Source of the DNA: Cherax quadricarinatus | Lineage: Eukaryota; Arthropoda; Malacostraca; Decapoda; Parastacidae | Reading direction: 5' to 3' | Assembly (NCBI RefSeq): GCF_038502225.1 | Contig: NC_091391.1 | Location: 2,555,652-2,619,651 of the forward strand | DNA length: 64,000 nt | Shown here: piece by piece, positions 16,186 to 58,150 of the stretch | Layout of the letters: each line of letters opens with the position of its first letter | Numbering within the stretch: the stretch's first letter is position 1 | Program-made: the position numbers and the translations under genes | Notes under the pieces: generated by a model | The model's database searches: none | Seen by the model: the letters and a program-made list of their open reading frames with translations, nothing else | What the model was told of the DNA's origin: nothing

Positions 16186-16189
16186 AGAA

Positions 16190-17186: not shown

Positions 17187-17279
<93 letters not shown>

Positions 17280-17282
17280 GTT
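17187..17282. repeat. (ATT)n microsatellite tail
   Basis: About 32 ATT triplets with one ACT interruption, at the 3' end of the RTE derivative. It produces the long leucine and asparagine frames that should not be annotated. Confidence 0.95.
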
Positions 17283-18034: not shown

Positions 18035-18436
18035 GTTGAAGAGTAAGACACATGTGCAACAGTTGCGTATCTTTATTGTTGATTGAAATGTTTCACCTTC
18101 ACAGTAGGCTTCTTCAGTCAAATACAAAGACAGCAGGTGTGGTACTGAAGTAAAGACGATATAATCAGTCCATCAACCTTGGAAAAATAATATTCAAGGT
18201 GGTCAGTCCCTCAGCCTGGTGGTCAGTCCCATAGTCTGGAATAGTACGAAGCTGAGGGATGAGAATGGAGTCTTAAATACTGCTGGAGGTGAGCTAGGAA
18301 GGTCTGGATGATTTAAGAGGAGGAGGAGCACTATGCTTGCTGCCTCTACTTGACTGAAGAACCCTGCTGTGTAAGCAAAACATTTCGATCAACAATGAAG
18401 ATATCCAACTGTTGCACATGTGCCTTACTCTTCAAC
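18035..18436. mobile_element. Foldback-type element
   Basis: Ends gttgaagagtaagacacatg and the inverse of tgccttactcttcaac, with inner blocks tatctttattg / caatgaagata and cttcttcagtc / gactgaagaacc inverted about the centre. The inverted partner in arm R is 38385-38785. It has the same architecture as 6286-6675 and 60518-60875. Confidence 0.82.
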
Positions 18437-19097
18437 TTGTTGGTGTTATACTATATCATTTTCAACATAACTGATATCAAAGTGTTGATAATACAGCCTC
18501 TCCTCCCTTAACGATGGAGTACTGTTCCTGAGACCACGTCTTTAAAAGAATTCATCGCTAAGTGAGGAGCATACTGTAATGGTAGTGAGTTTATGTTGAC
18601 CATCTTCGATATTGTTTTAATGTCACCTTTGCACCATTTATAAAATTTCTGGTATACAGTGGAACCTTGACTTAAAAGTTTAATCTGTTCTGTGACCTAG
18701 CTCGTAACTCAATTTGCTCATATATCAAGTAACTTTTCCTAATTTAAATTAATTGAATGCCATTAATCCATTCCAGCGGAATTCCTGCTCTCTGGAGGCA
18801 GGACAAAATACTTCAATATGACACTAATATCAACTCTTCGGCTTATTTATCTATCACAGTTCATCTAATATAACATAATAAACAATATAAATATCACAGA
18901 AACATGATATATACTCTAGAATGAATAAAATATGCCATTATGTGACTAGTGGTGGCGGCCCCTCCCACTCCCGCTCTGACTATATCTTCCCATGCTCTTA
19001 TTATAAGAGAAAATGGAGTGTTTGTGAGGCTAACTGCACTAGATCACTAGTTTCATAAGGAAAACACTAAAACAATGCATTTATAAATAAGAAATAT

Positions 19098-29734: not shown

Positions 29735-31153
29735 TAAGTAAGTAAGTAAGTAAGTTTATTCAGGTATACACAAATACAGTTACATAGAATTATCATATAT
29801 AACCAGGATAACCCAAAAAAGTCAGACAGAGTGACTTATTTCCATTGGGGTCCTTTTGCCTTATTATTATAGTATAAAGGTTATAATATTTTCTTATTGT
29901 TCTACAATGAAGATAACATCTTATTATCATACTAAAAAGACTATCTGCGACACCAAGGTCATTAAGACTATCTACAATACGAGGGTCATTACAAGGAATA
30001 AGGTAAAATTTACACGTATGTTAGCTAAAAAATAGAAAATCATTCCCCTCCCTTTCTGTAGCTACATTCATCAGACACCTTTTGGCACTCTTCTTGAACT
30101 GGTTCACGCTATGACTGGCTTTGACATGTGCGGGTAGTCTGTTCCATTCCTTTATTGCTGTACAATAAAAGGTGTTTGAAGCCTGGCCACTGACTGTGGG
30201 TACTACAAAGTTGTGCTCTCTCCCCCTAGTTCTATGATTGCTTTGGTTCCCAACCTTGACAAAATTGACAGCAAGATATTCTGGACATTGCTTGTGAGCA
30301 ATTTTATAAACATGATTTAGCTTCAGTTGTTTTACTCTGTCTTCAACATTCAGCATATCCAACTGCTGTAATTCATCCTGGCCTACATGTTCTCTTGGTC
30401 CCAGCCCCAGGATGAATCTTACGATTTTGTTCTGGGTGATTTGCAGTCTATCTTTCAGTTTTTTTTGTCAAGGCAGAGTACCAAGAAGAGCAAGCGTAAT
30501 CCATATGGCATTGTATAAGGGCTAGACATAGAGTCCTGCGAGCCTCAGTAGGTAGACACTGTGCTTGTCTATACAGGAACTTCAGTCTGGCATTCGCTTT
30601 CTTTACTACACTGTTCCCTATCAATTCTCCTGACATGCATGGGTCAAAGGGGATTCCCAAATATTTTACTGATGAAACCAAAGTGATGGGCTCCCCATTA
30701 CATTGAACATTAAAATTATTTACCCTTCTCAGTTTATGTTTCGTGCCAAAGAGAATGGCTTCAGTTTTCCCTAGGTGTAATGATAGTTTGTTGTCTACTA
30801 ACCATTTGCTGCAGGACTCCAGTTCCAGTGTTAAGACATTAGCAATATCTTGTGGGTCTTTACCTGACACTAACAGAGCACTGTCATCTGCATACAGTAG
30901 GAGTTTGCACTTGACACTGATAGGCATATCATTGACATAACATAAGAATAATAAGGGACCCAGAATACTACCTTGGGGAACTCCACATGTTATCGGCAGG
31001 GGTTCTGATTCTGTTTTGTTGATTTTGACTATTTGTCTCCTGTTGCTAAGGTAGGACTTAAACCAGTCTACAGAACCTATACCGATAGTTTGAAGTTTAT
31101 TACATAATATATTGTGGTTGACAGTATCGAAGGCCTTTTGCAGGTCTAAAACA
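29735..31153 (-). mobile_element. 5'-truncated Jockey/CR1-type LINE with (TTAC)n tail
   Basis: Minus strand, 3' end at the (AAGT)n tract 29738-29753. The 5' end is cut inside the reverse transcriptase at LQKAFDTVNH. It is a different family from both RTE and the CR1-like element at 39988. Confidence 0.88.
30021..31153 (-). pseudogene. LINE reverse transcriptase, C-terminal ~375 codons
   Basis: From 31153 downward the frame reads AFDTVNH (motif A), GVPQGSILGPLLFL (motif B) and LLLYADDSALLVSG (YADD, motif C), then SLHLGKTEAILFG, VKYLGIPFD and the post-RT helices. The frame breaks in an eight-base T run at about 30461-30468 and resumes as LDMLNVEDRVKQLKL to a stop at 30021. All catalytic Asp residues present in this portion are intact. 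Endonuclease and the front of the RT are missing through 5' truncation, normal for such elements. The single break in a homopolymer may be a sequencing error. Confidence 0.9.
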
Positions 31154-31570: not shown

Positions 31571-32095
31571 CAGTTTGGGTTTCTTTATTGATCAAACAAT
31601 ATGCCTCAACAGTTAACCCTCTCAGGGTTGACAGGCCCTCTCCCAGACTTGTTCTCAGGGTCAAAAAATGTTCAAAAAAAAAAAAAAATGTTTTCTTATG
31701 AAAAGATAGTTTTTTTTTTTTAAATCTTATAGGCTAAACAAAAAATTTTTACCATCAATACTTACCGAGATATGGAGGCATGAAGTTGACAAAATGATTG
31801 GCATATGGTAACATCGCCGACTGCCGGTCACCCAGTTTTAGTTTATTTAGTTTTTTGGTAATATTTTCTATTATTTTTTTTATTTTTTTTTCTCAAGTAA
31901 CTTTTATGGCCTGTGAGACCAATATGAGCACTATTTTGTAAGTTTTTTCTCTTTATTTACTACACAATAACTGCACAAACACTGTTGTCCTTATATTGTT
32001 TATAATTGTTGTTTACACACACAAACAATATAAAATGTTGTTTATTAGTATTTTTCTATATTTTATATACACATATACAGTCACAGGGAATGTTT

Positions 32096-35050
32096 CTAGA
32101 AGTTCTGCAGCCTGTGGAACTCTTTGAAACATGGTGTCATGCACAGTGGTGTTTTACACTCCTCACACATAAAACATGGTGTCATGCACAGTGGTGTTTT
32201 ACACTCCTCACACATAAAACATGGTGTCATGCACAGTGGTGTTTTACACTCCTCACACATAAAACATGGTGTCATGCACAGTGGTGTTTTACACTCCTCA
32301 CACATAAAACATGGTGTCATGCACAGTAGTGTTTTACACTCCTCACACATAAAACATGGTGTCATGCACAGTGGTGTTTTACACTCCTCACACATAAAAC
32401 ATGGTGTCATGCACAGTGCTGTTTTACACTCCTCACACATAAAACATGGTGTCATGCACAGTGCTGTTTTACACTCCTCACACATAAAACATGGTGTCAT
32501 GCACAGTGCTGTTTTACACTCCTCACACATAAAACATGGTGTCATGCACAGTGGTGTTTTACACTCCTCACACATAAAACATGGTGTCATGCACAGTAGT
32601 GTTTTACACTCCTCACACATAAAACATGGTGTCATGCACAGTGGTGTTTTACACTCCTCACACATAAAACATGGTGTCATGCACAGTGCTGTTTTACACT
32701 CCTCACACATAAAACATGGTGTCATGCACAGTGGTGTTTTACACTCCTCACACATAAAACATGGTGTCATGCACAGTAGTGTTTTACACTCCTCACACAT
32801 AAAACATGGTGTCATGCACAGTGGTGTTTTACACTCCTCACACATAAAACATGGTGTCATGCACAGTGGTGTTTTACACTCCTCACACATAAAACATAGT
32901 GTCATGCACAGTGTTGTTTTACACTCCTCACACATAAAACATGGTGTCATGCACAGTAGTGTTTTACACTCCTCACACATAAAACATGGTGTCATGCACA
33001 GTGGTGTTTTACACTCCTCACACATAAAACATGGTGTCATGCACAGTGCTGTTTTACACTCCTCACACATAAAACATGGTGTCATGCACAGTGGTGTTTT
33101 ACACTCCTCACACATAAAACATGGTGTCATGCACAGTGCTGTTTTACACTCCTCACACATAAAACATGGTGTCATGCACAGTGCTGTTTTACACTCCTCA
33201 CACATAAAACATGGTGTCATGCACAGTGGTGTTTTACACTCCTCACACATAAAACATGGTGTCATGCACAGTGGTGTTTTACACTCCTCACACATAAAAC
33301 ATGGTGTCATGCACAGTGGTGTTTTGCACTCCTCACACATAAAACATGGTGTCATGCACAGTGGTGTTTTACACTCCTCACACATAAAACATGGTGTCAT
33401 GCACAGTGCTGTTTTACACTCCTCACACATAAAACATGGTGTCATGCACAGTGCTGTTTTACACTCCTCACACATAAAACATGGTGTCATGCACAGTGGT
33501 GTTTTACACTCCTCACACATAAAACATGGTGTCATGCACAGTGGTGTTTTACACTCCTCACACATAAAACATGGTGTCATGCACAGTGCTGTTTTACACT
33601 CCTCACACATAAAACATGGTGTCATGCACAGTGCTGTTTTACACTCCTCACACATAAAACATGGTGTCATGCACAGTGGTGTTTTACACTCCTCACACAT
33701 AAAACATGGTGTCATGCACAGTGGTGTTTTACACTCCTCACACATAAAACATGGTGTCATGCACAGTGGTGTTTTACACTCCTCACACATAAAACATGGT
33801 GTCATGCACAGTGCTGTTTTACACTCCTCACACATAAAACATGGTGTCATGCACAGTGCTGTTTTACACTCCTCACACATAAAACATGGTGTCATGCACA
33901 GTGGTGTTTTACACTCCTCAAACATAAAACATGGTGTCATGCACAGTGGTGTTTTACACTCCTCACACATAAAACATGGTGTCATGCACAGTGCTGTTTT
34001 ACACTCCTCACACATAAAACATGGTGTCATGCACAGTGCTGTTTTACATTCCTCACACATAAAACATGGTGTCATGCACAGTGCTGTTTTACACTCCTCA
34101 CACATAAAACATGGTGTCATGCACAGTGGTGTTTTACACTCCTCACACATAAAACATGGTGTCATGCACAGTGCTGTTTTACACTCCTCACACATAAAAC
34201 ATGGTGTCATGCACAGTGCTGTTTTACACTCCTCACACATAAAACATGGTGTCATGCACAGTGCTGTTTTACACTCCTCACACACAAAACATGGTGTCAT
34301 GCACAGTGCTGTTTTACACTCCTCACACATAAAACATGGTGTCATGCACAGTGGTGTTTTACACTCCTCACACATAAAACATGGTGTCATGCACAGTGCT
34401 GTTTTACACTCCTCACACATAAAACATGGTGTCATGCACAGTGCTGTTTTACACTCCTCACACATAAAGCATGGTGTCATGCACAGTGGTGTTTTACACT
34501 CCTCACACATAAAACATGGTGTCATGCACAGTGGTGTTTTACACTCCTCACACATAAAACATGGTGTCATGCACAGTGCTGTTTTACACTCCTCACACAT
34601 AAAACATGGTGTCATGCACAGTGCTGTTTTACACTCCTCACACATAAAACATGGTGTCATGCACAGTGGTGTTTTACACTCCTCACACATAAAACATGGT
34701 GTCATGCACAGTGGTGTTTTACACTCCTCACACATAAAACATGGTGTCATGCACAGTGCTGTTTTACACTCCTCACACATAAAACATGGTGTCATGCACA
34801 GTGCTGTTTTACACTCCTCACACATAAAACATGGTGTCATGCACAGTGCTGTTTTACACTCCTCACACATAAAACATGGTGTCATGCACAGTGGTGTTTT
34901 ACACTCCTCACACATAAAACATGGTGTCATGCACAGTGGTGTTTTACACTCCTCACACATAAAACATGGTGTCATGCACAGTGGTGTTTTACACTCCTCA
35001 CACATAAAACATGGTGTCATGCACAGTGGTGTTTTACACTCCTCACACAT
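32096..35050 (-). CDS. 65-copy cysteine-knuckle array ending piggyBac transposase
   Basis: 984 codons without a stop: 65 exact 15-residue units MCEECKTPLCMTPCF followed by KEFHRLQNF and a stop. Copy 2 has the unexpanded equivalent (MCEECKVPLCMVPCF then KEFHKLQQF), which is the end of the piggyBac C-terminal cysteine-rich domain that binds DNA ends through zinc. Each unit has C-x2-C-x4-C-x3-C, giving about 260 cysteines. Variation is almost confined to residue 8 (Pro, Ala or rarely Leu/Thr); single exceptions are a Cys to Phe and a Met to Val. Upstream, RDTRF joins the array in the frame of the transposase, except for one shift in an eight-T run at 35081-35088. I cannot tell whether it is ever translated. 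It may be a purely DNA-level minisatellite that stayed open because 45 is a multiple of three. Confidence 0.8.
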   Translation of the reverse strand: MCEECKTPLCMTPCFMCEECKTPLCMTPCFMCEECKTPLCMTPCFMCEECKTPLCMTPCFMCEECKTALCMTPCFMCEECKTALCMTPCFMCEECKTALCMTPCFMCEECKTPLCMTPCFMCEECKTPLCMTPCFMCEECKTALCMTPCFMCEECKTALCMTPCFMCEECKTPLCMTPCFMCEECKTPLCMTPCFMCEECKTALCMTPCFMCEECKTALCMTPCFMCEECKTPLCMTPCFMCEECKTALCMTPCFVCEECKTALCMTPCFMCEECKTALCMTPCFMCEECKTALCMTPCFMCEECKTPLCMTPCFMCEECKTALCMTPCFMCEECKTALCMTPCFMCEECKTALCMTPCFMCEECKTPLCMTPCFMFEECKTPLCMTPCFMCEECKTALCMTPCFMCEECKTALCMTPCFMCEECKTPLCMTPCFMCEECKTPLCMTPCFMCEECKTPLCMTPCFMCEECKTALCMTPCFMCEECKTALCMTPCFMCEECKTPLCMTPCFMCEECKTPLCMTPCFMCEECKTALCMTPCFMCEECKTALCMTPCFMCEECKTPLCMTPCFMCEECKTPLCMTPCFMCEECKTPLCMTPCFMCEECKTPLCMTPCFMCEECKTALCMTPCFMCEECKTALCMTPCFMCEECKTPLCMTPCFMCEECKTALCMTPCFMCEECKTPLCMTPCFMCEECKTLLCMTPCFMCEECKTTLCMTLCFMCEECKTPLCMTPCFMCEECKTPLCMTPCFMCEECKTLLCMTPCFMCEECKTPLCMTPCFMCEECKTALCMTPCFMCEECKTPLCMTPCFMCEECKTLLCMTPCFMCEECKTPLCMTPCFMCEECKTALCMTPCFMCEECKTALCMTPCFMCEECKTALCMTPCFMCEECKTPLCMTPCFMCEECKTLLCMTPCFMCEECKTPLCMTPCFMCEECKTPLCMTPCFMCEECKTPLCMTPCFMCEECKTPLCMTPCFKEFHRLQNF
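32126..35050. repeat. 45-bp minisatellite, 65 copies
   Basis: The DNA view of the array: unit aaaacatggtgtcatgcaca plus gtggtgttttacactcctca plus cacat, 2,925 bp in total. The only frequent difference is gtggtg / gtgctg / gtagtg. Because the period is divisible by three, the plus strand is also open for 1010 codons, which is an artefact. Confidence 0.97.
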
Positions 35051-37239
35051 AAAACGAGTGTCTCTGCGTTGTTGTGGGCGTTTTTTTTATATGTTCACAG
35101 ATGTAACACCTCTTCTGAGCCTTTTTCTTGAAAGCAGTAGCAGGCAGTTTTACTAGGAAGTGATCACCATGCTTCAGACGAGAAGGTAGTTGTTGATAAT
35201 TTAGTGGGTGGTCTATTGCAGGTGTTGTTCCTTGGTACTTGAATAATAGTAATAATAGTATTTGTCTGATGACAGACAAACAAAATTTGCCATATGCTGG
35301 TTTGTTTCTGGTCCTCATCTTATACATATTATAAGCATTGAGCATGGAAATGTCCAGAAGATGGAAAAAGAGTTTTATGTACCACTTATAACTCTTGCAA
35401 ACACAATCAGCAAACTCAATCTGTATGTCACATTTGTCCACTGAGTGCATATTGAGGGTGTAATCAATCACAGCTGCAGGTTTTAGAATGGATTCATTGC
35501 TGTCTCTATGCTGCCTGCCAGTGTTTGCCATTTCATTAGGGTGAACTGATGACAACAGTATGTATAACATCTCATTTGTCATGCCACCAAAATGCCATGA
35601 TGTCATTGGTAGCAAACGCCTGCACCTCACCTCTACGAGTGCCAGCGTCAAACCTGGGCATATGTTTACGATTTGCTCGCACTGTGCCACACACATCTGT
35701 CATGTTCACTCGCAAAAAATCACTGAGTGAGGGGCTTGTGTACCAGTTATCAGTATATAATATATGCCCCTTACCAAGGTATGGTTCTATCATTGTTCTA
35801 ACCACATCACCAGAGATGCCCAATAACTTCCTGGTATTTTGCAATGTATAACTTCCAGTGTACACAATAATATCCAATACAAGACCACTGTAGCAGTCAC
35901 AAAGCACAAACAACTTTATACCAAAGCGTTTCTTCTTGCTTGGTATGTACTGCTTGAAAGTCTTCCTTTGAACAGAATCAAAGACTCGTCAATTATGAGC
36001 TTCCTGAAGGGATAAAAATACATATTGAATTTATCTTTCAGATACACAAACACATTCCTAATCTTAAATAACCTGTCGTTTCTGTCAGGCCTGGTTTTGT
36101 CTGAGAAGTGAAGCATACGTAATAGTAGCACAAATCTTCACTCCCATTATATCACTGAAACCTGGAGTTGCAATCAGGCGATCTGTTGACCAGTATGATT
36201 TCACATTGTGCTTCTGCACATGTGGCATAAGCATTATTGTGGCAAAGAAAAGATACATCTCAGCCACAGCTGTCTCCTTCCACTGGTGTAGACGTGATTT
36301 TGGTGAAAGTATTGTGTTTGCCATGGTGTACTCGTAGTATCTGTTGCTTTCCCTGACAATAATTTCCATCAGGGGTTCGTCAAAGAATAGCTTGAAACAT
36401 TCCAGTTCACTGCCATTGTTCCCCAGTGTACAAGATGGCCGTATTCCACTTTGGCTTTCATCAAACTGGTTGGGATTTGGAACAAAATTGGCAGCTTCCT
36501 GCCAATCCCAGGTGCGGTCTGCTGGTGGGTACTGGACATTGACAGGTGGTTGTGGTTGTGGAGGTTGTGGATGTAGAGGCTGGTGTTGTGGGTGGGTGGG
36601 GGATGGTGGCCTTTGTTGAAGATCAGCTGAGGCAGTGGTGTGGGTGGCAGCGTGGGTGGCAGTATGGCCCACTGCTGGTGCCTCACGGCTGGCACCACCA
36701 CTACCACCACCATGCACATTTTCCATCCCACTTGCAACACTATCATATCTTCATTTTCACTGTCTGTTCCTGTTGTACAGCCACGGGATGTACTCCGAGA
36801 TGTACTCCTTCCCCTTGGAATAGCATATGGCCCACTACCAGAGGGCATATATCGTCGTATATACTGACGCTTCACTGGAGAATATTCCACTTCACTATCA
36901 CTACTGGAACTGTTTTCAAGAGCTTGTAGTTCATATTCACTATCACTATCATCACCAATGCTCACATCTGAGTCTGGGATTTGGGGAAATAGGAGTTTCC
37001 TCTTTGATTCTGGTACAACTGAATGTGAACAAGACGGCCCAGCAGCAGAGGTGGAAGGCTGAGGGTCGTCTGGGTTTTCCTCACTATTACCTGTATTATG
37101 GTCATTAGTTTTGGTCACAAACTCGCCCAAAACCTTGAAACTCATCTTCACTGGCACTTCCATCTGTATTAGAACTGTCACGGAGGAACAAAATTGCCCC
37201 AGTTCGCCGAGGAGTGAGGAGCTTCTTACCGCGAGGCAT
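35043..37239 (-). pseudogene. piggyBac transposase, copy 1, multiply frameshifted
   Basis: Start MPRGKK at 37239. Order of parts: acidic, Ser-rich disordered N-terminus (ENPDDPQPSTSAAGPSC, SSSSDSEVEYSPVKRQY, PRGRSTSRSTSRG); Pro/His/Gln-rich linker; then the DDE transposase domain (FFDEPLMEIIVRESNRYYEY, KSYWSTDRLIATPGF). The three catalytic Asp positions are all visible: LIIDESLILFKGRL, HILYTDNWYTSP and MHSVDKCDIQIEF. They lie in three different frames because of breaks near 37150, 36735, 36110, 35915 and 35690. KWYIKLFFHLLDISMLNAYN and CYIC lead to the cysteine-rich end, which continues as the 65-copy array. The reaction of the intact family is cut-and-paste at TTAA. This copy cannot make the enzyme. 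Confidence 0.92.
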
Positions 37240-37474
37240 GGTGAACAAGGTCTACTAAAATGGCATTCCCACAATGCGCCACTGGGTCCCAGATTTTTTT
37301 TCTACCATGCACACCGACCACACACACCCATTCTCTCACATCTAGGCCTATCAGCCTTTTCCCGTGAGATTTGAAGGCGCTAGAACTTATGCGTACTAGT
37401 ACGTCAATAACCCTGGTGCGTAAGCCGTACTAGTACGTTGGAAACCCTGAAAGGGTTAATTATGCTGAACAGTT

Positions 37475-37528: not shown

Positions 37529-38384
37529 TTGTAGATGAATGGTTCAGAGAACCGACACGTTGATAAATTAGACATATGTGCAACTCTTGGGTACCTTTAC
37601 TGAGGAAACGTTTTGTCAAACAGTGGCTTCATCAGTCCATACAAAGGAGAAACATGAAGAACAGGAGGAGAGTGAGGTAATCAGTTCCTCAACCTTGAGT
37701 CGATGTGGTCAGTCCATCAATCTTGAATAGAATACAGCATATATGTGTGGAGAAGCAGCTTATAAACCGTAGGCAGGAGAGGTGCAGCAGTCGTAGGTGG
37801 TGTCACATTTTTTCCAATGTGGAAGTAGGTCATGCCTAATATAGTCAGAGCGGGAGTGGGAGGGGCCGCAACCACTAGTCACATAATGGCATATTTTATT
37901 CATTCTAGAGTATATATCATGTTTCTGTGATATTTATATTATTTATTATGTTATATTAGATGAACTGTGATAGATAAATAAGCCGTAGAGTTGATATTAG
38001 CGTCATATTGAAGTATTTTGTCCTGCCTCCAGAGAGTAGGAATTCCGCTGGAATGGATTAATGGCATTCAATTAATTTAAATTAGGAAAAGTTACTTGAT
38101 ATATGAGCAAATTGAGTTACGAGCTAGGTCACAGAACAGATTAAACTTTTAAGTCAAGGTTCCACTGTATACCAGAAATTTTATAAATGGTGCAAAGGTG
38201 ACATTAAAACAATATTGAAGATGGTCAGCATAAACTCACTACCATTACAGTATGCTCCTCACTTAGCGATGAATTCTTTTAAAGACGTGGTCTCAGGAAC
38301 AGTACTCCATCGTTAAGGGAGGAGAGGCTGTATTATCAACACTTTGATATCAGTTATGTTGAAAATGATATATAACACCAATAA

Positions 38385-38785
38385 GTTGAAGAGTAAGGCA
38401 CATGTGCAACAGTTGGATATCTTCATTGTTGATCAAAATGTTTTGCCTACACAGCAGGGTTCTTCAGTCAAGTAGAGGCAGCAAGCATAGTGCTCCTCCT
38501 CCTCTTAAATCATCCAGACCTTCCTAGCTCACCTCCAGCAGCATTTAAGACTCCATTCTCATCCCTCAGCTTCGTACTATTCCAGACTATGGGACTGACC
38601 ACCAGGCTGAGGGACTGACCACCTTGAATATTATTTTTCCAAGGTTGATGGACTGATTATATCGTCTTTACTTCAGTACCACACCTGCTGTCTTTGTATT
38701 TGACTGAAGAAGCCTACTGTGAAGGTGAAACATTTCAATCAACAATAAAGATACGCAACTGTTGCACATGTGTCTTACTCTTCAA
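38385..38785. mobile_element. Foldback-type element (arm R copy)
   Basis: Inverted duplicate of 18035-18436; same inverted ends and aataaagatac blocks. Confidence 0.85.
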
Positions 38786-39057
38786 CTAAGATATCAATAT
38801 TACTGGAAGTGACAGCGAATAAGTTAATATTACCAAAGCAAACACAAACACATGTGACAAACCTCGTGACTGTGGTGGTTTTTTCAGAGGTGTGTACACA
38901 ACCAACAGTACACACATGTACACATTCCACATACAGTACACACCCAGAAGAAATCCGCCAGTATTCTGGATTTCCAGTTGTCCGAAAGTATAATCCCACA
39001 TCCACATGCCATCATGCAGCTGTTGACAAAATAAAATAATAATAATAATAATCATAG

Positions 39058-39655
<598 letters not shown>

Positions 39656-40019
39656 TAGGAACCTCTTCTCCTGTATAAATTACCAAATTTAAAAAGAAAA
39701 ACTTTCATTTTTGTTTTTTAGGTCACCCTACCTTGATGGAATACAGCCAGTGTGTTGAAAGAAGAATAATAATTGTAACAATAATGTAATTCAAGATGTA
39801 ATTAACAGAGACAGGGTCCTCCTTCAGATGTATTTCTGAGTGAAGTGGAGGCCGTGATTACACTGCCTTTTTCCCACTCACCTCCTGCAACATTGTATAG
39901 CTCCTGATGAGGCACTGGTTGCAGAGTGAAAGACCTAGAGTTAGCCCTTTCATATCCCCCTCCCTGTGAATACTTCAGGATTTTGTGTTTACCTGGAGTT
40001 TACCTGGAGAGAGTTCCGG

Positions 40020-41650
40020 GGGTCAACGCCCCCGCGGCCCGGTCTGTGACCAGGCCTCCTGGTGGATCAGAGCCTGATCAACCAGGCTGTTACTGCTGGC
40101 TGCACGCAAACCAACGTACGAGCCACAGCCCCACTGGCCAGGAACCGACTTTAGGTGCTTGTCCAGTGCCAGCTTGAAGACTGCCAGGGGTCTGTTGGTA
40201 ATCCCCCTTATGTATGCTGGGAGGCAGTTGAACAGTCTCGGGCCCCTGACACTTATTGTATGGTCTCTTAAAGTGCTAGTGACACCCCTGCTTTACATTG
40301 GGGGGATGTTGCATCTTCTGCCAAGTCTTTTGCTTTCGTAGTGAGTGATTTTCGTGTGCAAGTTCGGTACTAGTCCCTCTAGGATTTTCCAGGTGTATAT
40401 AATCATGTATCTCTCCCGCCTGCATTCCAGGGAATACAGGTTTAGGAACCTCAAGCGCTCCAAGTAATTGAGGTGTTTTATCTCCGTTATGCGTGCCATG
40501 AAGGTTCTCTGTACATTTTCTAGGTCAGCAATTTCACCTGCCTTGAAAGGTGCTGTTAGTGTGCAGCAATATTCCAGCCTAGATAGAACAAGTGACCTGA
40601 AGAGTGTCATAATGGGCTTGGCCTCCCTAGTTTTGAAGGTTCTCATTATCCATCCTGTCATTTTTCTAGCAGATGCGATTGATACAATGTTATGGTCCTT
40701 GAAGGTGAGATCCTCTGACATGATCACTCCCAGGTCTTTGATGTTGGTGTTTCGCTCTATTTTGTGGCCAGAATTTGTTTTGTACTCTGATGAAGATTTA
40801 ATTTCCTCGTGTTTACCATATCTGAGTAATTAAAATTTCTCATCGTTGAACTTTATATTGTTTTCTGCAGCCCACTGAAAGATTTGGTTGATGTCCGCCT
40901 GGAGCCTTGCAGTGTCTGCAATGGAAGACACTGTCATGCAGATTCGGGTGTCATCTGCAAAGGAAGACACGGTGCTGTGGCTGACATCCTTGTCTATGTC
41001 AGATATGAGGATGAGGAACAAGATGGGAGCGAGTACTGTGCCTTGTGGAACAGAGCTTTTCACCGTAGCTGCCTTGGACTTTACTCTGTTGACTACTACT
41101 CTCTGTGTTCTGTTAGTGAGGAAATTATAGATCCATCGGTGGCCCGGTGGCCTGGTGGCTAAAGCTCCCGCTTCACACACGGAGGGCCCGGGTTCGATTC
41201 CCGGCGGGTGGAAACATTCGACACGTTTCCTTACACCTGTTGTCCTGTTCACCTAGCAGCAAATAGGTACCTGGGTGTTAGTCGACTGGTGTGGGTCGCA
41301 TCCTGGGGGACAAGATTAAGGACCCCAATGGAAATAAGTTAGACAGTCCTCGATGACGCACTGACTTTCTTGGGTTATCCTGGGTGGCTAACCCTCCGGG
41401 GTTAAAAATCCGAACGAAATCTTATCTTATCTTATCTTATCGACCGACTTTTCCTGTTATTCCTTTAGCACGCATTTTGTGCGCTAGTACGCCATGGTCA
41501 CACTTGTCGAAGGCTTTTGCAAAGTCTGTATATATTACATCTGCATTCTTTTTGCCTTCTAGTGCATCTAGGACCTTGTCGTAGTGATCCAATAGTTGAG
41601 ACAGACAGGAGCGACCTGTTCTAAACCCATGTTGCCCTGGGTTGTGTAAC
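40020..41650 (-). pseudogene. CR1-like reverse transcriptase, two in-frame stops
   Basis: Minus strand from 41650: HNPGQHGFRTGRSC, then YTDFAKAFDKCDHGVL (motif A), the SINE, then SSVPQGTVLAPILFL (motif B) and SSFADDTRICMTV (FADD, motif C). A TAA at about 40830 follows NNIKFNDEKF, and the same frame continues through EDLTFKDHN, the LEYCCTLTAPFKAGEIADLE block and LRFLNLYSLECRRERYMIIY. A second stop after NIPPM at 40293 interrupts the last ~80 residues. Few changes separate it from a readable frame, so it is a recent insertion, agreeing with its absence from arm L. The homologous 61-kb copy has Lys in place of the second stop. Confidence 0.88.
41143..41445 (+). mobile_element. tRNA-derived SINE, full length
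   Basis: The head has an A-box-like TGGCCTGGTGG and a perfect B-box GGTTCGATTCC, so it descends from a tRNA and is probably transcribed by Pol III. A body follows with acctgggtgttagtcgactg and gacagtcctcgatgacgcac, then a (ATCTT)n tail. Short duplicate atcg sequences flank it inside the LINE. Other copies: 61366-61670 (minus), 10551-10782 (truncated). Confidence 0.92.
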
Positions 41651-41657
41651 TGATGGG

Positions 41658-42300
41658 TGTGTATATATACTTACATATATGGTTGCAGGTGTCAAGGCAC
41701 AGTTTCTGGTCCTGCCTCTTCACTGGTTGCTACTAGATCCACTCACTCCTGGCTTCAAGAGTCTTACTGTACCTCTTCTTTTAACTGTGCATGGGTGCTG
41801 CCTCTACCACTTCACTCTCCAGACTGTTACTTCTTGACAACTCTAAGGCTGAAGAAATATTCCCTAACATCCGTAAGACTCATCTAAGTTTTCAATTTCC
41901 ACCTGTGCCCTTTTCTTTCTTTTTCCCATCTTGGAAGCATTCTGTCCCAGTTTACTCTGTCAATTCCTCTCGGTAATTTTATGTCATTATCATATATTCC
42001 CTAGTCCTCCTGTGTCATCAAGTTGAGTTCCCTTAACCTGTCCTCACAGGACATACCACTTAGCTCGGGGATTAGTCTTGTTGCAAACCTCTGCACATTC
42101 TCCAATTTCTTGATATGCTTGACCAGGTGTGGGTTTCATACTGGTGCTGCATACTCCAATATGGGCCTGATACACAGTAAACAGTGTCATGAATAACTCC
42201 TTACTTAGATATCGAAAAGTTATTCTTAGGTTTGCCAGGCGTCCATATGCTTCAACAGTTATTTTGTTGATGTGAGTCTTAGGGAATATGCTTGGTATGA
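41658..42300 (-). pseudogene. CR1-like LINE C-terminal fragment (arm R copy)
   Basis: Inverted duplicate of 16190-16835, with the same KKLENVQRFATRLIPELSGM region on the minus strand (near 42055-42110). Confidence 0.8.
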
Positions 42301-42324
42301 TACCAAAACACTGTTCTCCTTGAG

Positions 42325-42690
42325 TGAGGTTTGCTTATACAGCAGATGAGGTTCTGGGCTACTGTAGGGACCTTCTTATGCAGCAGATGAGGTTTTGGGA
42401 TACTGTAGGGCCCAGCTTATACAGCAGTTTAAGTTCTGGGTTACTTTAGGGACCTCCTTATACAGCAGGTTAAGTTCCAGGCTACTGTAGGGCCCTGCTT
42501 ATGCAGCAGGTTAGGTTCTGGGCTACGGTAGGTCCCACTTGTGCAGCAGGTACCGGGCTACTGTAGGGCCCCACTTATAGAGCAGGTCAGGTTCTAGGTT
42601 AATGTAGGGACCCACTTATATAGTAGTTTAGGTTCTGGGCTACTGTAGGCACCTGCTTATACAGCAGGTTAGGTTCCCGGCTACTGCTGT
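42325..42690. repeat. ~38-41-bp minisatellite (arm R copy)
   Basis: Inverted duplicate of 15810-16185 with some unit differences. Confidence 0.9.
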
Positions 42691-42794
42691 AAAGCAAAAA
42701 TATCTGTAAAGCGAAAATTGCTGTAAAGTGAATCATAGCTTTTTTCACTTTCAAATGAATATAAAATTCTGATGAAATGTTTACGCTATCATAT

Positions 42795-43165
42795 ATTAAC
42801 TCTTAAACTGTCCATACATAGATCTACATTTTCCCTGCCAGTGCTCCGAATATTTTGAAAAACAAAATTTTTTTTTTTTTTATTAAAGAGGGCAATTTTC
42901 TGTGTGTAATAAGAGCCCCAAAAAATTTTAAGGGCCAGTACTTACCGAGATATAAGAACGCAAAGGTGGCACTGGATGCTCACCAGACGGCAACATCGAG
43001 TCCTGCCGCTCACAAAAATGTTGCCGATATACCTTTTTTCTCGTTTTTATTTTAATTTATATAATTTTTATGTTCTGATAATTACAATTTATAGTAGTTC
43101 TTGTGATTTCATAGCCAATCTGACACTAATATTAGGTACTGAAATAGTACTCAAATAGTCACAAA
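42795..43165 (+). mobile_element. piggyBac-like fragment, uninterrupted by the LINE
   Basis: ttaactcttaaactgtcc at 42798, then gtgctccgaatattttgaaa, a T run, ggccagtacttaccgagata and gcaacatcgagtcctgcc. This is the empty-site version of the place where the RTE LINE sits in arm L. Confidence 0.7.
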
Positions 43166-43409
43166 CACCACCAGGTGAACATTTTCACCTGCCTTGGTCA
43201 CATATTATTGTCTAGAATATATACAAAGTAATTATAGGTCTCAGCAATGTTTTAGACATGCTGGAGTATGTACGAAACTCCTTGAAGTATGATGCTAAGA
43301 CGAGTGTCAGTAAACTGATGACAGTGATGCAGTGGAATGACAACTGATAATCGTGCACTGCTCCAGGAAACCCTGGCATTATTTGTTTTCACTGTTACAC
43401 ACAAACATG

Positions 43410-43500
43410 CATGTCTGTCAGTCTATCTATCTGTCTGTCTGTGTATCTGTCTTTCTGTCTGCCTGTGTGTGTCTGTCTTTCCATCTGCTTATCTTTGTCT
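43410..43500. repeat. TGTC-type tetranucleotide repeat (arm R copy)
   Basis: Inverted duplicate of 11375-11455. Confidence 0.9.
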
Positions 43501-44173
43501 CAGAGAGTGGCTCGTAAACTAACAGGTATTACACATGATGCAGAGTCATCCTGATCAAGTGAAAATGCATAATACTTGCCAATCATGCTTATTCTGCCTT
43601 ATATCTAAAAGCACTGTTAGCACTTTCCCAGAATTTTTGGATTACCCTAAGTAATTTACGCTATGTATAATAACTCTACTTATGTGTACCTGTGAGAGAG
43701 AGACAGCCAAAGTCATTCAGCTGGCCAGACTGCTGAATACATATTACAAGTTCCAGAATCGTTTCTTTACTTAAGGCATAGGTTATGGGACATTCTGGCA
43801 GGATGATACTGCCAGTGGTATAAAAAATGAAAGGGTGTTGCACAAATGTTGCAGAAGGGTTAGGCAAGCCTAACCCTTAGGCTTGCCTAACCCTTAGGCA
43901 TGACCTACTTCCACATTGGACAAATGTGACACCACCTATGACTGCTGCACCTCTCCTGCCTACGGTTTATAAGCTGCTTCTCCGCACATATATGCTGTAT
44001 TCTATTCAAGATTGATGGACTGACCACATCGACTCAAGGTTGAGGAACTGATTACCTCACTCTCCTCCTGTTCTTCATGTTTCTCCTTTGTATGGACTGA
44101 TGAAGCCATTGTGTGGCAAAACGTTTCTTCAGTAAAGATACCCAAGAGTTGCACATGTGTCTAATTTATCAAT

Positions 44174-47947: not shown

Positions 47948-48522
47948 GAGGAAGCCTGGTAAGGGAGTGTGTAGTGAGGATGGTCAACCTCTGGCATCAT
48001 CACTAGTCTAGTGAGGGAGTGTGTAGTGACTATAATCAACCTCTGGCATCATCACTAGTCTAGTGAGGGAGTGTGTAGTGAGGATAATCAACCTCTGGCA
48101 TCATCACTAGTCTAGTGAGGGAGTGTGTAGTGAGGATGGTCAACCTCTGGCATCATCACTAGTCTAGTGAGGGAGTGTGTAGTGAGGATGGTCAACCTCT
48201 GGCATCATCACTAGTCTAGTGAGGGAGTGTGTAGTGAGGATAATCAACCTCTGGCATCATCACTAGTCTAGTGAGGGAGTGTGTAGTGAGGATGGTCAAC
48301 CTCTGGCATCATCACTAGTCTAGTGAGGGAGTGTGTAGTGAGGATGGTCAACCTCTGGCATCATCACTAGTCTAGTGAGGGAGTGTGTAGTGAGGATAAT
48401 CAACCTCTGGCATCATCACTAGTCTAGTGAGGGAGTGTGTAGTGAGGATAATCAACCTCTGGCATCATCACTAGTCTAGTGAGGGAGTGTGTAGTGAGGA
48501 TAATCAACCTCTGGCATCATCA
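47948..48522. repeat. 52-bp minisatellite, 11 copies
   Basis: Unit agtctagtgagggagtgtgt, then agtgaggat, aatcaacctctggcatcatc and act, 52 bp (aligned starts at 48005 and 48057). Copies differ mainly in gataatc versus gatggtc, so the array is young. Confidence 0.96.
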
Positions 48523-49178
48523 CAAGGTATGAATTGTCACCACATCCTCTTGACGCTTATAAACATGTTCAAACATGCACTTATTTCCAACCACTGAAGA
48601 TCTAGGGTTAGGTTACATTACTTAAATTTGATTATAAAGCTAAAAGGTTTTATATGGGTAGGGGTATTTGAGGCTGTAATATTACAATTAAAAAGCCTTA
48701 ATTGTATGGCACTTAGTTGATTGTACAACTGTTGTAGAGGATATGTACATAAACTTTTATTGTTTGATCATGCAAAATTTGATCATTCATAAGTTTGGAA
48801 GTTGATATTCCACTGATCTCATACAGACTCCAAATAAAATTAAGGTGCTTTTGAAGCTGTGCCAATTTTCTGTCTTGCTAGTCATTTGTATCTGAAAATG
48901 AATCTCAGGCTTTCAGTATTATATTTTATGCATATATGTCACATTATTTATTTGTTCTTTTAGAACTAGTTACTGAGAAGTTATGTGGATCTCTGAATTT
49001 TTATCTTTTTATTACCTGTTGTATTATTACGTATTGCTTGTGTTTTTTGCCTGTCTGCTGTAACTTAGACTTGCCGTGTGGTCTTTCTTTTAGTTTTAAA
49101 TTATTTTTTTTTTTTGTCAGACTTCCTCTAAACATTGCAGGTGACACCACTCTTTTACTTTACGAAATTCACATTGTG
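48523..49178. other. No repeat or gene recognised
   Basis: Second candidate single-copy stretch. The frame 48936-49181 is hydrophobic but lacks splice or promoter context and runs into the next insertion, so it is not called. Confidence 0.4.
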
Positions 49179-49187: not shown

Positions 49188-50628
49188 TTTTTTTTGCTTT
49201 TTTTTAAACAAACCGGTCGCATCCCACCAAGGCAGGGCGGCCCAAAAAGAAAAACAAAAGTTTCTCTTTTTAAATTTAGTAATATATACAGGAGAAGGGG
49301 TTACTAGGCCCTTGCTCCCAGCATTTTAGTCGCCTCTTACAACACGCATGGCTTACTGAGGAAGAATTCTGTTCCACTTCCCCATGGAGATAAGAGGAAA
49401 TAAACAAGAACAAGAACTAGAAAGAAAACAGAAGAAAACCCAGATGGGTGTGTATATATATGTTTGTACATGTATGTGTAGTGTGACCTAAGTGTAAGTA
49501 GAAGTAGCAAGATGTACCTGAAATCTTGCATGTTTATGAGACAGACAAAAGACATCAGCAATCCTACCATCATGTAAAACAATTACAGGCTTTTGTTTTA
49601 CACTCACTTGGCAGGACGGTAGTACCTCCCTGGGTGGTTGTTGTCTACCAACCTACTACCACAGGACGGTAGTACCTCCCTGGGTGGTTGCTGTCTACCA
49701 ACCTACTACCACAGGATGGTAGTACCTCCCTGGGTGGTTGCTGTCTACCAACCTACTACCACAGGACGGTAGTACCTCCCTGGGTGGTTGTTGTCTACCA
49801 ACCTACTACCACAGGACGGTAGTACCTTCCTGGGCGGTTGCTGTCTACCAACCTACTACCACAGGACAGTAGTACCTCCCTGGGTGGTTGCTGTCTACCA
49901 ACCTACTACCACAGGATGGTAGTACCTCCCTGGGTGGTTGTTGTCTACCAACCTACTACCACAGGACAGTAGTACCTCCCTGGGTGGTTGTTGTCTACCA
50001 ACCTACTACCACAGGATGGTAGTACCTCCCTGGGTGGTTGTTGTCTACCAACCTACTACCACAGGATGGTAGTACCTCCCTGGGTGGTTGCTGTTTACCA
50101 ACCTACTACCACAGGATGGTAGTACCTCCCTGGGTGGTTGCTGTCTACCAACCTACTACCACAGGACGGTAGTACCTCCCTGGGTGGTTGTTGTCTACCA
50201 ACCTACTACCACAGGACGGTAGTACCTTCCTGGGCGGTTGCTGTCTACCAACCTACTACCACAGGACGGTAGTACCTTCCTGGGCGGTTGCTGTCTACCA
50301 ACCTACTACCACAGGACAGTAGTACCTCCCTGGGTGGTTGCTGTCTACCAACCTACTACCACAGGATGGTAGTACCTCCCTGGGTGGTTGTTGTCTACCA
50401 ACCTACTACCACAGGACAGTAGTACCTCCCTGGGTGGTTGTTGTCTACCAACCTACTACCACAGGATGGTAGTACCTCCCTTGGTGGTTGTTGTCTACCA
50501 ACCTACTACCACAGGATGGTTGTTGTCTACCAACCTACTACCACAGGATGGTTGTTGTCTACCAACCTGCTACCACAGGACGGTAGTACCTCCCTGGGTG
50601 GTTGCTGTCTACCAGCCTGCTACCTAGA
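49188..50628 (-). mobile_element. RTE derivative with 20-copy 5' monomer array
   Basis: Flanked by TAGTGCTAA at 49179-49187 and 50629-50637. Minus strand: the 3' tail (ccggtcgcatcccaccaagg) lies at 49205 and the head runs to cacttggcaggacgg near 49617. Instead of the single 50-bp monomer seen in other copies it carries about 20. The duplication encloses the array, so the monomers are part of the element, either inserted as such or expanded in place. Confidence 0.9.
49617..50628. repeat. 50-bp monomer array at the 5' end of the RTE derivative
   Basis: Unit aggacggtagtacctccctg, ggtggttgttgtctaccaac and ctactaccac. The last units before 50580 are shortened to 30 bp (aggatggttgttgtctacc). One monomer of the same sequence is present at the 5' end of the copies at 17730, 20690 and 39065, and a partial one begins the full-length LINE. 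Confidence 0.95.
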
Positions 50629-55228: not shown

Positions 55229-58150
55229 ATCTGAAGTGGTGCCCCAATGTCCAAGAAATTTTGAAAAAAAAAAAAATCTATCAGAATTAAAGAGTATATT
55301 TTTGTGAAGGTAATAAAACAACAAAAAAAATGTTCTGATCAGTACTTACCGAGTTACAGTGCCGAGAAGTTGACTCAAAATGACCGGGTGGTGGCAACAT
55401 CGACAATTTCCACATACGCGCATTATTTTATTTAATGTTTTTTGTAGTTTTTTCTTTTCTTTTCTAATTTTTTTCTTTTTCTACTAACATTTGGGGCCTG
55501 AGAGACGAATACTGTATATAATGTATATACGTATATAAACTCACTGTATTGAACACAATAACCGCACTAAAGTTATTACATTATTGTTTACCACTTTTGT
55601 TTATTACAATAAACATGCACAAATCTTGTATAATACTAATGTTCTATCATATATTTACATATTTACAATCACTGGACATGGTTTTAGAACTGCTGGAGCT
55701 TGTGGAACTCCTTGAAACAAGGCACCATGCACAGAGGCACCTTACATTCCTCACACATAAATCGAGTGTCTTTGCGTCTTTGTTGCCGTCGTTTTGTTTG
55801 TGCACAGACAATGCATCTCTTCTGAGCAAATTTCTTCTTAGTTGCAGGAAGCTGTATTATGAAATGATCACCTTCCCTCCTCAAACGCTAGGGTATATTC
55901 TGAGGAGTTCGAGGACCTTGTTGTATAGCAGGTGTTCTTACCTGGTGTTCCATTATGAGTTGTCTGACAACAGACAAACAAAATTCACCATACGGTGGTC
56001 TTTTGCCAGTCTTCATTTGGTACATATTATATGCATTGAGCATTGAAATGTCCATGAGATGGAAGAAAAGTTTCACGTACCACTTGTAACTCTTACGAAC
56101 ACAATCAACAAAGCCAATCTGCATGTCACATTTGTCAACCAAGCGCATGTTTTGTGTATAATCAATCACTGTATCTGGTTTTCGAATACGTTCATTAGTC
56201 ATTCTATCAACTTTGCCACTGTCTTGCATTTCGTTATGGTGAATGGTTGTCAACAATGTGACATCTTGTTTGTCATGCCACCGTAATGCCATGATGTCAT
56301 TGGCAGTAAACACCTGCACCTCATCACCACGAGCACCTGCGTTGAGCCTGGGCATATATTTATGATTAGAATGCACTGTGCCACACACATCTGTCTTGTT
56401 TACTTGCAAGAAATCACTGAGTAAAGGGCTTGTGTACCAGTTATCGATATATAATGTATGCCCCTTACCAAGATAAGGTGCCATCATGCTTCTCACTACA
56501 TCACCTGAGATACCCAATAACATCTTGGTATCTTTCAATGTTTTACATCCCGTGTATACAACAATATCCAACACCAGGCCACTGTCACGGTCACAGAGTA
56601 CAAACAGTTTTATACCAAAGCATTTCCTCTTGCTCGGTATATACTGCTTGAACGACAGTCTACCTTTGAACAAAATCAAAGACTCGTCAATTACAAGATT
56701 CTTGAATAGATAAAAGTATATGCTGAACTTTTGTTTGAGATACATGAAAACATTTCTAATCTTGTATATCCTGTTACTTCTGTCAGGCCTGGTTTTGTCA
56801 GAGAAGTGCAACATACGTAAGAGTAAGATAAACCTGTTCACTGGGATGATTTTACTGAAGACCGGGGTAGAAATTAGCCAATCTGTGGACCAGTATGCTT
56901 TTATACATGTATTATGCTTATAGACATGAAGCATAAGCATTATTGTTGCAAAAAGCAAATACATTTCTGCAGCAGTCGTCTCTTTCCACCGGTGTAGTCT
57001 TGACTGTGGTGATATGATCATATTTGCCATGGTGTACTCAAAATACTTGTTACTTTCCCTGGCAATAGTTTCCATCAAGGGCTAGTCAAAGAATATTTCA
57101 AAGAATTCCAGTTCATTGGCTGTGGTTCCAAGGGGACAAGTAGGTAGAATTCCACTTTGAGAGTCATCAAAGTGGTGGGGATGGGAACAAAATTGGGATT
57201 TTGCTGCCAATCCCAGATACGGTTTGCTGGTGGATACTGGACATCATAGGCTGGTTGTGCGGGTAGTTGTGGTTGTGGTGGGCTGGTGGCTGACGCTCCG
57301 CTTTGTCCTTAAACTGAGGAGTCAGTAGCGTGGGTCCCAGCCTGGGCTGGTGAGTCACGCATGGCCGTGGCACTACCATCACCACTACCACCACCTTCTG
57401 ATGCCTATGGTCTATCCTTGCCAAGTGTAGCCGCATCATCCTCACTTTCACTGTCTATTCCTGGTGTAGGGCCACGGGATGTACTCTGGGATGTACTCCG
57501 TCCCCTGGGCACTGCATAGGGAACACTACCTGAGCGTATGCGGTGGCATACATACTGACGCCTCACTGGTGAATATGTTTCCTCACTATCACTATTCGAT
57601 TGATCGTCAAGAGCAATAAAATCACAATCCACGTCACTATCATCATCATTACTGAAGTCAGAGGCCTGGCCACGTGAAAATAATAGTTTTCTTTTGCGAT
57701 GAGGTACAACTGACCGTGACTGAGGCGTGCCCACACCAGAGGTAGAAGGTTGAGGATCGTCAGGGTTTTCTGCACTATTATCGATATCCTGGTCATTCCT
57801 TTCGGTCACTAACTGATCAAAGCTAAAGAATTCATCTTCATTTCCACTTCCATCAGAGTCAGAACTATCAAATAGGAAGAGGAGAGTCCCAATTTTCCTT
57901 GGAGTGAGAGCTGCCTTGTGACGAGGCATGGTGAACAAAGGTAACTGAGCCGGCGTTCCCACAATGCTATGTGGGCGCCTAGATATTTTGTTTACAGCGC
58001 ACACACACCATGCAGACCCATTCTCTCACATGTAGGCCTATCAGCGGTTTTGTGCTAAATTTGATGCCGCTAGAATTTTGGCACAGATCTACGGGACGGA
58101 CCCTGAATGTGAAGCTGTAGATCTACGGGATGGACCCTGAAAGGGCCAAA
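55229..58150 (-). mobile_element. piggyBac element, copy 2
   Basis: The right end gaccctgaaagggcc at 58133-58147 preserves the terminal motif but not the TTAA. The left end starts at ctgaagtggtgccccaatgt (55231), the subterminal sequence of 27181-28249, with the outermost bases replaced. Transposase on the minus strand. Unexpanded cysteine-rich end, so total length is about 2.9 kb, normal for the family. Confidence 0.85.
55684..57929 (-). pseudogene. piggyBac transposase, copy 2, few lesions
   Basis: Start MPRHKAALTPRK at 57929. The N-terminus is acidic and Ser-rich (ENPDDPQPSTSGVG, SNSDSEETYSPVRRQYV, PRGRSTSQSTSRG). A frameshift near 57410 moves into another frame and a further shift precedes 57078. 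From there 396 codons are open and hold the whole DDE domain: YWSTDWLISTPVF, LVIDESLILFKGRL (first Asp), LFVLCDRDSGLVLDIVVYTG, HTLYIDNWYTSPLLSDFL (second Asp), MRLVDKCDMQIGF (third Asp) and KWYVKLFFHLMDISMLNAYN. A single in-frame TAG at 55888-55890 separates this from the cysteine-rich end: RCIVC, then TRFMCEECKVPLCMVPCF and KEFHKLQQF. In the active family this domain binds the transposon ends. Confidence 0.93.

What the first reader, a model, noticed from the sequence alone, without database searches (positions are those of the whole stretch)
32096..35088. 65-fold in-frame expansion of the piggyBac C-terminal zinc knuckle
Seen: 65 units of 15 codons (CEECKTPLCMTPC, four Cys each) lie exactly where copy 2 has one, and end with the family's normal KEFH tail. 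Known: the cysteine-rich end of piggyBac transposase binds zinc and the transposon ends. Inference: replication slippage or unequal exchange turned one DNA-binding knuckle into a ~975-residue, ~260-Cys tract, either a protein with extreme metal or DNA valency or a minisatellite that is open only because 45 is divisible by three. I know of no described transposase like this.
Basis: partly seen in the sequence, partly recalled or inferred. Interest (0 to 1): 0.9.

Follow-up and report, generated by a model that had tools for sequence, protein, structure and literature searches.

The report
Transposon-borne zinc-finger minisatellite in crayfish
A 45-base piece of a piggyBac transposase gene is repeated 65 times inside a broken transposon copy in what is probably a crayfish genome; hundreds of other sites there carry arrays of the same piece next to the same transposon tail, most ending in a frame-breaking 44-base unit, so it is most likely a mobile minisatellite and not a giant zinc-binding protein.

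Summary
The array is real: 65 units of exactly 45 bp (window 35050-32126, minus strand) stand where related piggyBac copies have one unit, followed by the normal KEFHRLQNF stop. The giant-transposase reading is not supported. The host copy is a pseudogene: six frame-changing gaps and a stop against an intact relative 90.6% identical, one gap about 30 bases before the array. The unit holds only four of the about eight zinc ligands inferred for the finger.

The larger finding lies outside the window. In the 3.95-Gb host assembly (probably Cherax crayfish) I counted 88 multi-unit array ends with a 45-bp last unit and 227 with a 44-bp, frame-breaking one. Most carry the tail of a high-copy, apparently non-autonomous element with a piggyBac-type right end: 50 of 55 checked tails carry at least two units, and 22 copies an estimated 3 to 18. 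Unit variants define at least two array lineages.

Best explanation: slippage between GTTT repeats 45 bp apart in the zinc-finger codons seeded a minisatellite, which transposition then spread. Three open frames of six are what chance gives. Minisatellites fill about 16% of a sample of this genome. New member of a known kind: a transposon-borne minisatellite.

The parts
31613..37459 (-). piggyBac-type element (copy 1) including its two flanking TTAA
   Evidence: Alignment to L006 runs from TTAACCC to GGGTTAA; ends checked; 5.85 kb with the array, about 2.97 kb without 64 of the 65 units
37456..37459 (-). TTAA at the 5' end, followed by CCCTTTCAGGG (terminal inverted repeat)
31613..31616 (-). 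TTAA at the 3' end, preceded by CCCTGAGAGGG
36085..36726 (-). transposase fragment with the start of the DDE domain (PF13843, profile 3-78)
35572..35913 (-). transposase fragment, DDE domain middle (profile 158-270), frame broken on both sides
35043..35696 (-). transposase fragment, DDE domain end and first zinc-ligand pair (CYIC); runs into a stop in the first array unit
35081..35088 (-). A-run at which copy 1 has one base more than L006, which takes the array out of the transposase frame
   Evidence: position checked
35052..35055 (-). left GTTT microhomology, just before the first unit
   Evidence: sequence
32126..35050 (-). array of 65 units of 45 bp (MCEECKTPLCMTPCF); last unit ends in C like the single unit of relatives
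32127..32130 (-). right GTTT microhomology in the last unit
   Evidence: sequence
32096..32125 (-). normal family C-terminus KEFHRLQNF and stop
55714..55758 (-). single unit of copy 2 (MCEECKVPLCMVPCF)
   Evidence: coordinates by my own count from the frame

Best explanation
This is a minisatellite inside a dead piggyBac transposon, likely seeded when DNA replication slipped between two GTTT repeats 45 bases apart in the zinc-finger codons; arrays of the same unit, found at hundreds of other sites, were probably spread there by transposition of relatives that likely make no transposase. Shown: the array, the broken transposase, the single-unit relatives (one with an intact frame), the GTTT pair at the array edges, at least 315 multi-unit array ends in the genome (this one included), the predominance of 44-bp frame-breaking last units, two array-bearing sister elements ending in the same terminal repeat at two different TTAA sites, and variable unit number. 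Inferred: slippage as first step, growth by slippage or unequal exchange, mobilisation in trans by intact copies, and absence of a protein product. The window's array belongs to a pure 45-bp lineage (class A, three loci read); the five other loci read belong to a mixed 44/45-bp lineage (class B).
For: Array and unit variants. Host copy broken. Relatives L003-L007 have one unit, L006 with an intact frame; they are 97.6-99.3% identical to each other. GTTT at both edges, 45 bp apart. Genome counts, up to three mismatches: 1,784 unit junctions, 0 in the reversed control; 88 of 89 hits are array ends with a 45-bp last unit; 227 with a 44-bp last unit, 95 of the 98 whose letters are shown having the class-B tail TTTCACAG; 1,064 tails of that type; of 55 exact tails on contigs C1-C22, 50 have a listed multi-unit array end (a lower bound). 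The class-B body is conserved: right part 98-99% in 39 further copies and 87% in one more place (40 best scored of 4,054 candidates); left part 91-98% in 39 further copies (40 best of 3,377). 22 of those 40, the ones with a listed array end, have an estimated 3-18 units. Two sister copies end at ..AAAGGGTTAA in two different TTAA sites of a DDE_1-type element. Unit classes: 80 class-A units, all 45 bp, GCA in 35 of 79 scorable; 239 class-B units, 177 of 44 bp, GCA in 0 of 235 scorable. Frames: 3 of 6 open; 39% of shuffled units and 57% of window 45-mers do as well. Kilobase arrays are common: 24 arrays of 200 bp or more cover 16.3% of 180 kb, 5 exceed 2 kb.
Against: The window array has no indel in 65 units, as a coding tract would; but 9 of 24 sampled arrays also show 0% indels, and class B does not keep frame. 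Distinct variants are 4 of 10 synonymous against 18% of all substitutions or 31% of transitions (one-sided p = 0.085 and 0.38): weak, compatible with slight constraint or with chance. In C96 the array is still in frame with the finger codons just before it; the frame break lies further up. The left end of the class-B element was not reached, so its full terminal repeats are not shown, and C89 departs from C57 about 310 bp left of the array. The flank tree joins array copy C96 to single-unit copies while C96 shares the GCA variant with the other class-A arrays; slippage plus transposition alone does not explain this.
Confidence: 0.85

Rival explanations
1. A functional or recently functional transposase with a long zinc-binding, DNA-binding tail, made by in-frame expansion of its C-terminal finger.
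For: One open frame of 984 aa with the normal C-terminus, no indel in 65 units. In C96 (59 units of 45 bp) the array is in frame with the finger codons directly before it. Engineered piggyBac with two such domains is active on symmetrised ends (PMC11707139, passages seen), so extra domains are tolerable in principle.
Against: Six frame-changing gaps and a stop upstream in the window copy; C96 has a frame break further up within the 0.8 kb read and has lost the CxxC ligand pair before the array, and C17b has a frame break just before its array; 0 of the 120 listed homologous proteins (of 292) has more than one unit by motif, 96 having one and 24 none; none of 116 scored frames exceeds 783 aa; 44-bp units break the frame in the class-B arrays; the unit lacks half of each inferred zinc site.
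Confidence: 0.03
2. Arrays arose independently many times, copy by copy, because copies of the family carry the GTTT pair 45 bp apart (a recurrent hot spot), and transposition of arrays is minor.
For: Array copies do not form one clade apart from single-unit copies on flanking sequence; class A and class B units differ consistently.
Against: 50 of 55 exact class-B tails checked carry arrays in bodies that are 98-99% alike among the best 40 scored, and the two sister copies read share the 44/45 mixture, which fits inheritance. A test on another piggyBac family of this genome with a longer flanking repeat did not complete.
Confidence: 0.12
3. Assembly artefact: collapsed or inflated repeat.
For: No reads available; array length cannot be verified here.
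Against: Both edges are ordinary piggyBac sequence; units carry ordered internal variants; the same kind of array recurs at hundreds of sites with other lengths.
Confidence: 0.03

Closest known systems
piggyBat transposase (Myotis lucifugus), PDB 9c0f, and its cross-brace cysteine-rich domain
   Same: The intact relative L006 aligns to it over residues 285-755 including the C-terminal finger (E 2.3e-64)
   Different: One finger there; here one half of the finger is repeated 65 times in a broken copy
piggyBac transposase, PDB 6x67/6x68, and engineered two-domain versions (PMC11707139 and PMC7351741, passages seen)
   Same: Same superfamily; duplicating the finger domain by design has been tried
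   Different: Engineered duplicates are whole domains in a working protein; these are half-fingers in broken copies
Transposon-borne tandem repeats: Tetris foldback element of Drosophila virilis (PMC4079207, search listing and start of abstract only), DINE-TR1 helitron repeats (PMC6947457, passage seen)
   Same: Transposons linked to tandem repeats that can seed satellite DNA
   Different: Here the unit is transposase coding sequence, the zinc-finger codons, and the element is piggyBac-type
Minisatellites arising in transposable elements by slippage between short flanking repeats (model of Haber and Louis 1998 as reviewed in PMC6947457, passage seen; Alu, B1, MaLR examples listed there)
   Same: Short direct repeats at the array edges; expansion of the segment between them
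   Different: Flanking repeat only 4 bp (reviewed model 5-10 bp); host is a DNA transposon's coding region. A review notes satellite DNA related to transposon ORFs in chicken (PMC9659126, passage seen), so coding origin as such is not new
Crayfish minisatellite-rich satellitomes (PMC13130569, abstract start and passages seen)
   Same: Minisatellites, family mean unit length 35-47 bp, are the largest satellite component in freshwater crayfish
   Different: The word piggyBac does not occur in its main text

Membership tests
piggyBac superfamily element (copy 1) | TTAA at both ends and terminal inverted repeats | tested here: met
   TTAACCCTTTCAGGG .. CCCTGAGAGGGTTAA, aligned to L006 ends
piggyBac superfamily element (copy 1) | DDE_Tnp_1_7 domain (PF13843) | tested here: met
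   three fragments over the cut-off
piggyBac superfamily element (copy 1) | intact transposase frame | tested here: not met
   six frame-changing gaps and a stop against L006
piggyBac superfamily element (copy 1) | C-terminal zinc finger (PF13842) | tested here: not met
   met in the relatives L006 and L001; no Pfam match in the 984-aa array frame of copy 1, and only PF13843 in the other three fragments
transposase with multiplied zinc fingers | array in one frame with the catalytic domain | tested here: not met
   window copy; C96, C17b, C57, C75a; other array copies not translated
transposase with multiplied zinc fingers | each unit holds a complete set of zinc ligands | tested here: not met
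   by alignment with piggyBat and the ligand pattern of Pgm (PMC8086355, passage) the unit has four of eight ligands; inference, no metal assay
transposon-derived minisatellite | unit homologous to a single segment of the element, short direct repeats at the edges | tested here: met
transposon-derived minisatellite | copy number varies between related arrays | tested here: met
   10, 59 and 65 units in class A; 3-18 in class B, estimated
non-autonomous piggyBac element with internal tandem repeats (class B) | many dispersed near-identical copies that share the array | tested here: met
   identities are those of the best 40 scored only
non-autonomous piggyBac element with internal tandem repeats (class B) | TTAA insertion with both terminal repeats | tested here: inconclusive
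non-autonomous piggyBac element with internal tandem repeats (class B) | no transposase of its own | tested here: inconclusive
   of the 1.4 kb left of the array in L039 only about 140 bp match piggyBac copies at E <= 1e-20; sequence further left not read

The most novel reading that the evidence does not exclude
A transposon family has turned the zinc-finger codons of its own transposase into a mobile minisatellite that outlives and outruns the protein: one array lineage sits in elements with different flanks (class-B 44-bp units next to both tail types and next to an autonomous-type left flank), so the array itself may move between transposon families by gene conversion or recombination while those families carry it round the genome.
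Probability: 0.3. Interest if true: 0.6.

Novelty: new member of a known kind. Interest (0 to 1): 0.42.

Why it matters
It gives a series of related loci, from single-unit copies (one intact) through 10-, 59- and 65-unit arrays to a high-copy 44-bp form, in which the birth, growth, frame loss and spread of a minisatellite from coding DNA could be followed. Freshwater crayfish genomes are rich in minisatellites (PMC13130569), and this points to one concrete route by which a DNA transposon may supply and distribute them. It also warns that long open frames in repeat arrays are weak evidence for protein: in such a genome they arise by chance whenever the unit length is a multiple of three.

Tried and rejected
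Rejected: giant metal-binding or DNA-binding transposase; selection for frame inside the window array (variants 4 of 10 synonymous, p 0.085-0.38; absence of indels is common among arrays here); assembly artefact as main cause.

Led nowhere or uninformative: the protein search with the 984-aa array frame returned no candidate, which I do not use as evidence because a 755-aa protein later found (P0002) carries nearly the same unit and should have shared words. Literature searches for a piggyBac-satellite link or a multiplied-finger transposase gave no match by listing (listings only, except the papers of which passages were opened). The class-A tail count, the test on the L001 piggyBac family and a mitochondrial look for the species did not complete. 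No structure prediction was run. No transcript data were available. Class A and class B were defined by me after seeing the units.

Full report
What is there. The minus strand of the window holds a piggyBac-type element from TTAA at 37459-37456 to TTAA at 31616-31613. At 35050 a tandem array begins that runs to 32126: 65 units of exactly 45 bp, no insertion or deletion, ten distinct unit sequences, dominated by two that differ at one base (CCA or GCA, Pro or Ala; 29 and 25 exact copies). The order of the two types (PPPPAAAPPAAPPAAPAAAAP...) suggests growth by blocks of several units; that is inference. The last unit differs from the consensus by a final C instead of T and equals the single unit of the relative L004. 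After it comes the normal C-terminus KEFHRLQNF and a stop. The first-stage observation is right on all this.

The array is not joined to a transposase. Against L006, a relative with an intact 755-aa frame and one unit, copy 1 is 90.6% identical over 2,430 aligned columns upstream of the array and has six frame-changing gaps and one in-frame stop. One gap is a single extra base at the A-run 35081-35088, about 30 bases before the first unit. Pfam finds the DDE domain in three separate fragments and nothing in the array frame. An annotated protein of Cherax quadricarinatus (P0001, 93% identical to L006) ends with a tail that looks like the same reading-frame loss, so that run may slip often; this last is inference.

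The unit is half a finger. The intact relative matches Pfam zf-Tnp_2 and aligns through its C-terminus with piggyBat, PDB 9c0f. In piggyBat two zinc ions are held by Cys3His1 and Cys2His2 sets in cross-brace fashion (PMC11707139, passages); in the Pgm domain one site takes His701, Cys723, Cys726, His749 and the other Cys712, Cys715, Cys737, Cys745 (PMC8086355, passages). By this pattern the unit (CEECKTPLCMTPC) supplies two ligands to each site, while the upstream His, the CxxC pair before the array and the His of KEFH lie outside. So the array would be one finger and 64 half-sites, not 65 knuckles. This assignment is inference from alignment.

Openness is cheap. Of the six frames of the unit three are open; 39% of 2,000 shuffled units and 57% of 2,000 random window 45-mers do as well or better. 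In eighteen 10-kb samples at fixed round coordinates on nine contigs (180 kb), 24 arrays of 200 bp or more, in 12 of the 18 samples, cover 16.3% of bases; five exceed 2 kb; nine of the 24 have 0% indels and nine have a period divisible by three. The two 10-kb stretches next to the window were left out of that count. Published figures for C. quadricarinatus give 22.6% of the assembly by Tandem Repeats Finder (PMC10106460, passages).

The same unit elsewhere. The window lies in an assembly of 3.95 Gb in 7,334 contigs. A 44-base junction pattern that needs two adjacent units was found 1,784 times with up to three mismatches, and 0 times when read backwards; only the first hundred or so places are listed. 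A pattern covering the last junction, the last unit and the tail found 89 places, of which one reads as a single unit, so 88 array ends with a 45-bp last unit. The corresponding pattern with a 44-bp last unit found 227; 95 of the 98 places whose letters are shown carry the tail TTTCACAG. The 44-bp form lacks one base of GAGGAG and breaks the frame at every unit.

Two lineages of units. In the fetched loci, class A (this window; C17:50.5 Mb, here C17b; C96:9.7 Mb; 80 units read) is all 45 bp, keeps GTGCAT and has GCA in 35 of 79 scorable units. Class B (C17:23.8 Mb, C75:19.8 Mb, C75:20.7 Mb, C57:2.08 Mb, C89:15.3 Mb; 239 units read) has 177 units of 44 bp, 57 of 45 and 5 shorter, mostly GTGTAT (171), and GCA in 0 of 235 scorable. 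C96 has 59 units by coordinates; of these five were classed. C17b and C96 sit in flanks 84-96% identical to the window copy and its relatives L003-L007. The copies translated upstream of the array (C96, C17b, C57, C75a) are all broken; in C96 the array is in frame with the finger codons just before it, but those have lost the CxxC pair and the frame breaks further up. C75:20.7, C89 and C17:23.8 were not translated there. The C75:19.8 array is interrupted by another tandem repeat.

A mobile array-bearing element. Loci C57 and C89 share 97-98% identical bodies including arrays of 12 and 8 units and end at the same terminal repeat ..CAAAGGGTTAA. The DNA beyond (about 35 bases compared, one difference) is the same DDE_1-type element, entered at two different TTAA sites in opposite orientations. 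Leftwards C89 departs from C57 about 310 bp before the array. The 520-bp tail of C57 scored 98-99% in 39 further copies, with one more match at 87% (40 best scored of 4,054 first-look candidates), and its left kilobase 91-98% in 39 further copies, 31 of them over the full length (40 best of 3,377). Its tail pattern occurs 1,064 times. Of the 55 exact tails on contigs C1-C22, 50 have a listed multi-unit array end; this is a lower bound because the list was cut. From coordinates, 22 of the 40 copies, those with a listed array end, have an estimated 3 to 18 units, if nothing else lies between. The left end was not reached, so I call it piggyBac-type, apparently non-autonomous, and not more.

How it most likely works. 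In the single-unit copies the sequence GTTT stands directly before the unit and again at its end, 45 bp apart. Slippage or microhomology repair between them would duplicate exactly this unit, which fits the reviewed model of minisatellite birth from short flanking repeats (PMC6947457, passage). Once two units exist, slippage and unequal exchange can add more, and loss of the reading frame costs nothing in a dead copy. Single-unit copies, five of them 97.6-99.3% alike and so probably recent, include an intact frame (L006) of the kind that could move dead array-bearing copies in trans. None of these steps was observed; they are inferred from anatomy. Among the 116 transposase frames scored (of 10,864 candidates) the longest is 783 aa, so long in-frame arrays are absent there; expansions of one or two units cannot be excluded by length alone.

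What does not fit neatly. The flank tree places C96 with the single-unit copies (support 95) and C17b next to them (81), while C96, C17b and the window share the GCA variant. Class-B units also occur next to flanks of the window copy's type (C75). Exchange of units between dispersed copies would explain both, as would early polymorphism; I could not decide. The tree rests on about 260 + 520 aligned columns and 13 copies, two of them with one side only.

Which organism. The seven best-scoring homologous proteins are from Cherax quadricarinatus; that species has 100 chromosomes (PMC10106460, abstract). Cherax is therefore likely; the species is not proven.

Noticed in passing
window 10995-18985 and 37839-43862: Large inverted dispersed repeat, three blocks at 97.5-98.8% identity, each copy holding an internal 41-bp array of about 9 units (15820-16169, 42334-42686): a second repeat-bearing mobile element by its look, starting 380 bp from the piggyBac copy
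   Followed up: partly
window 3-3775 and L009:8764-10000: 26-bp minisatellite of about 145 copies that continues beyond the window start; further 50-, 52- and 44-bp arrays at 49612-50624, 47962-48523 and 63727-64000
   Followed up: no
window 30448-30927, minus strand: Fragment of a reverse transcriptase (RVT_1, E 3e-05, 24.2 bits, below the family cut-off of 29.6) near the piggyBac copy
   Followed up: partly
protein P0001 (Cherax quadricarinatus): Otherwise long piggyBac frame ends with the tail TPTTTQRHSFYV like copy 1, so the A-run before the repeated finger half may be a recurrent slippage site that truncates the finger
   Followed up: no
G000:C19:9261540-9262574: Two class-B tails (one at 87% identity) meet end to end in opposite orientation, overlapping by four bases, as if one element inserted into the TTAA at the end of another
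   Followed up: no
L001 (C16) and its relatives: A second piggyBac family whose single unit is flanked by TTCATG on both sides, a longer microhomology than GTTT; a natural test of the slippage model, tried but not answered
   Followed up: partly
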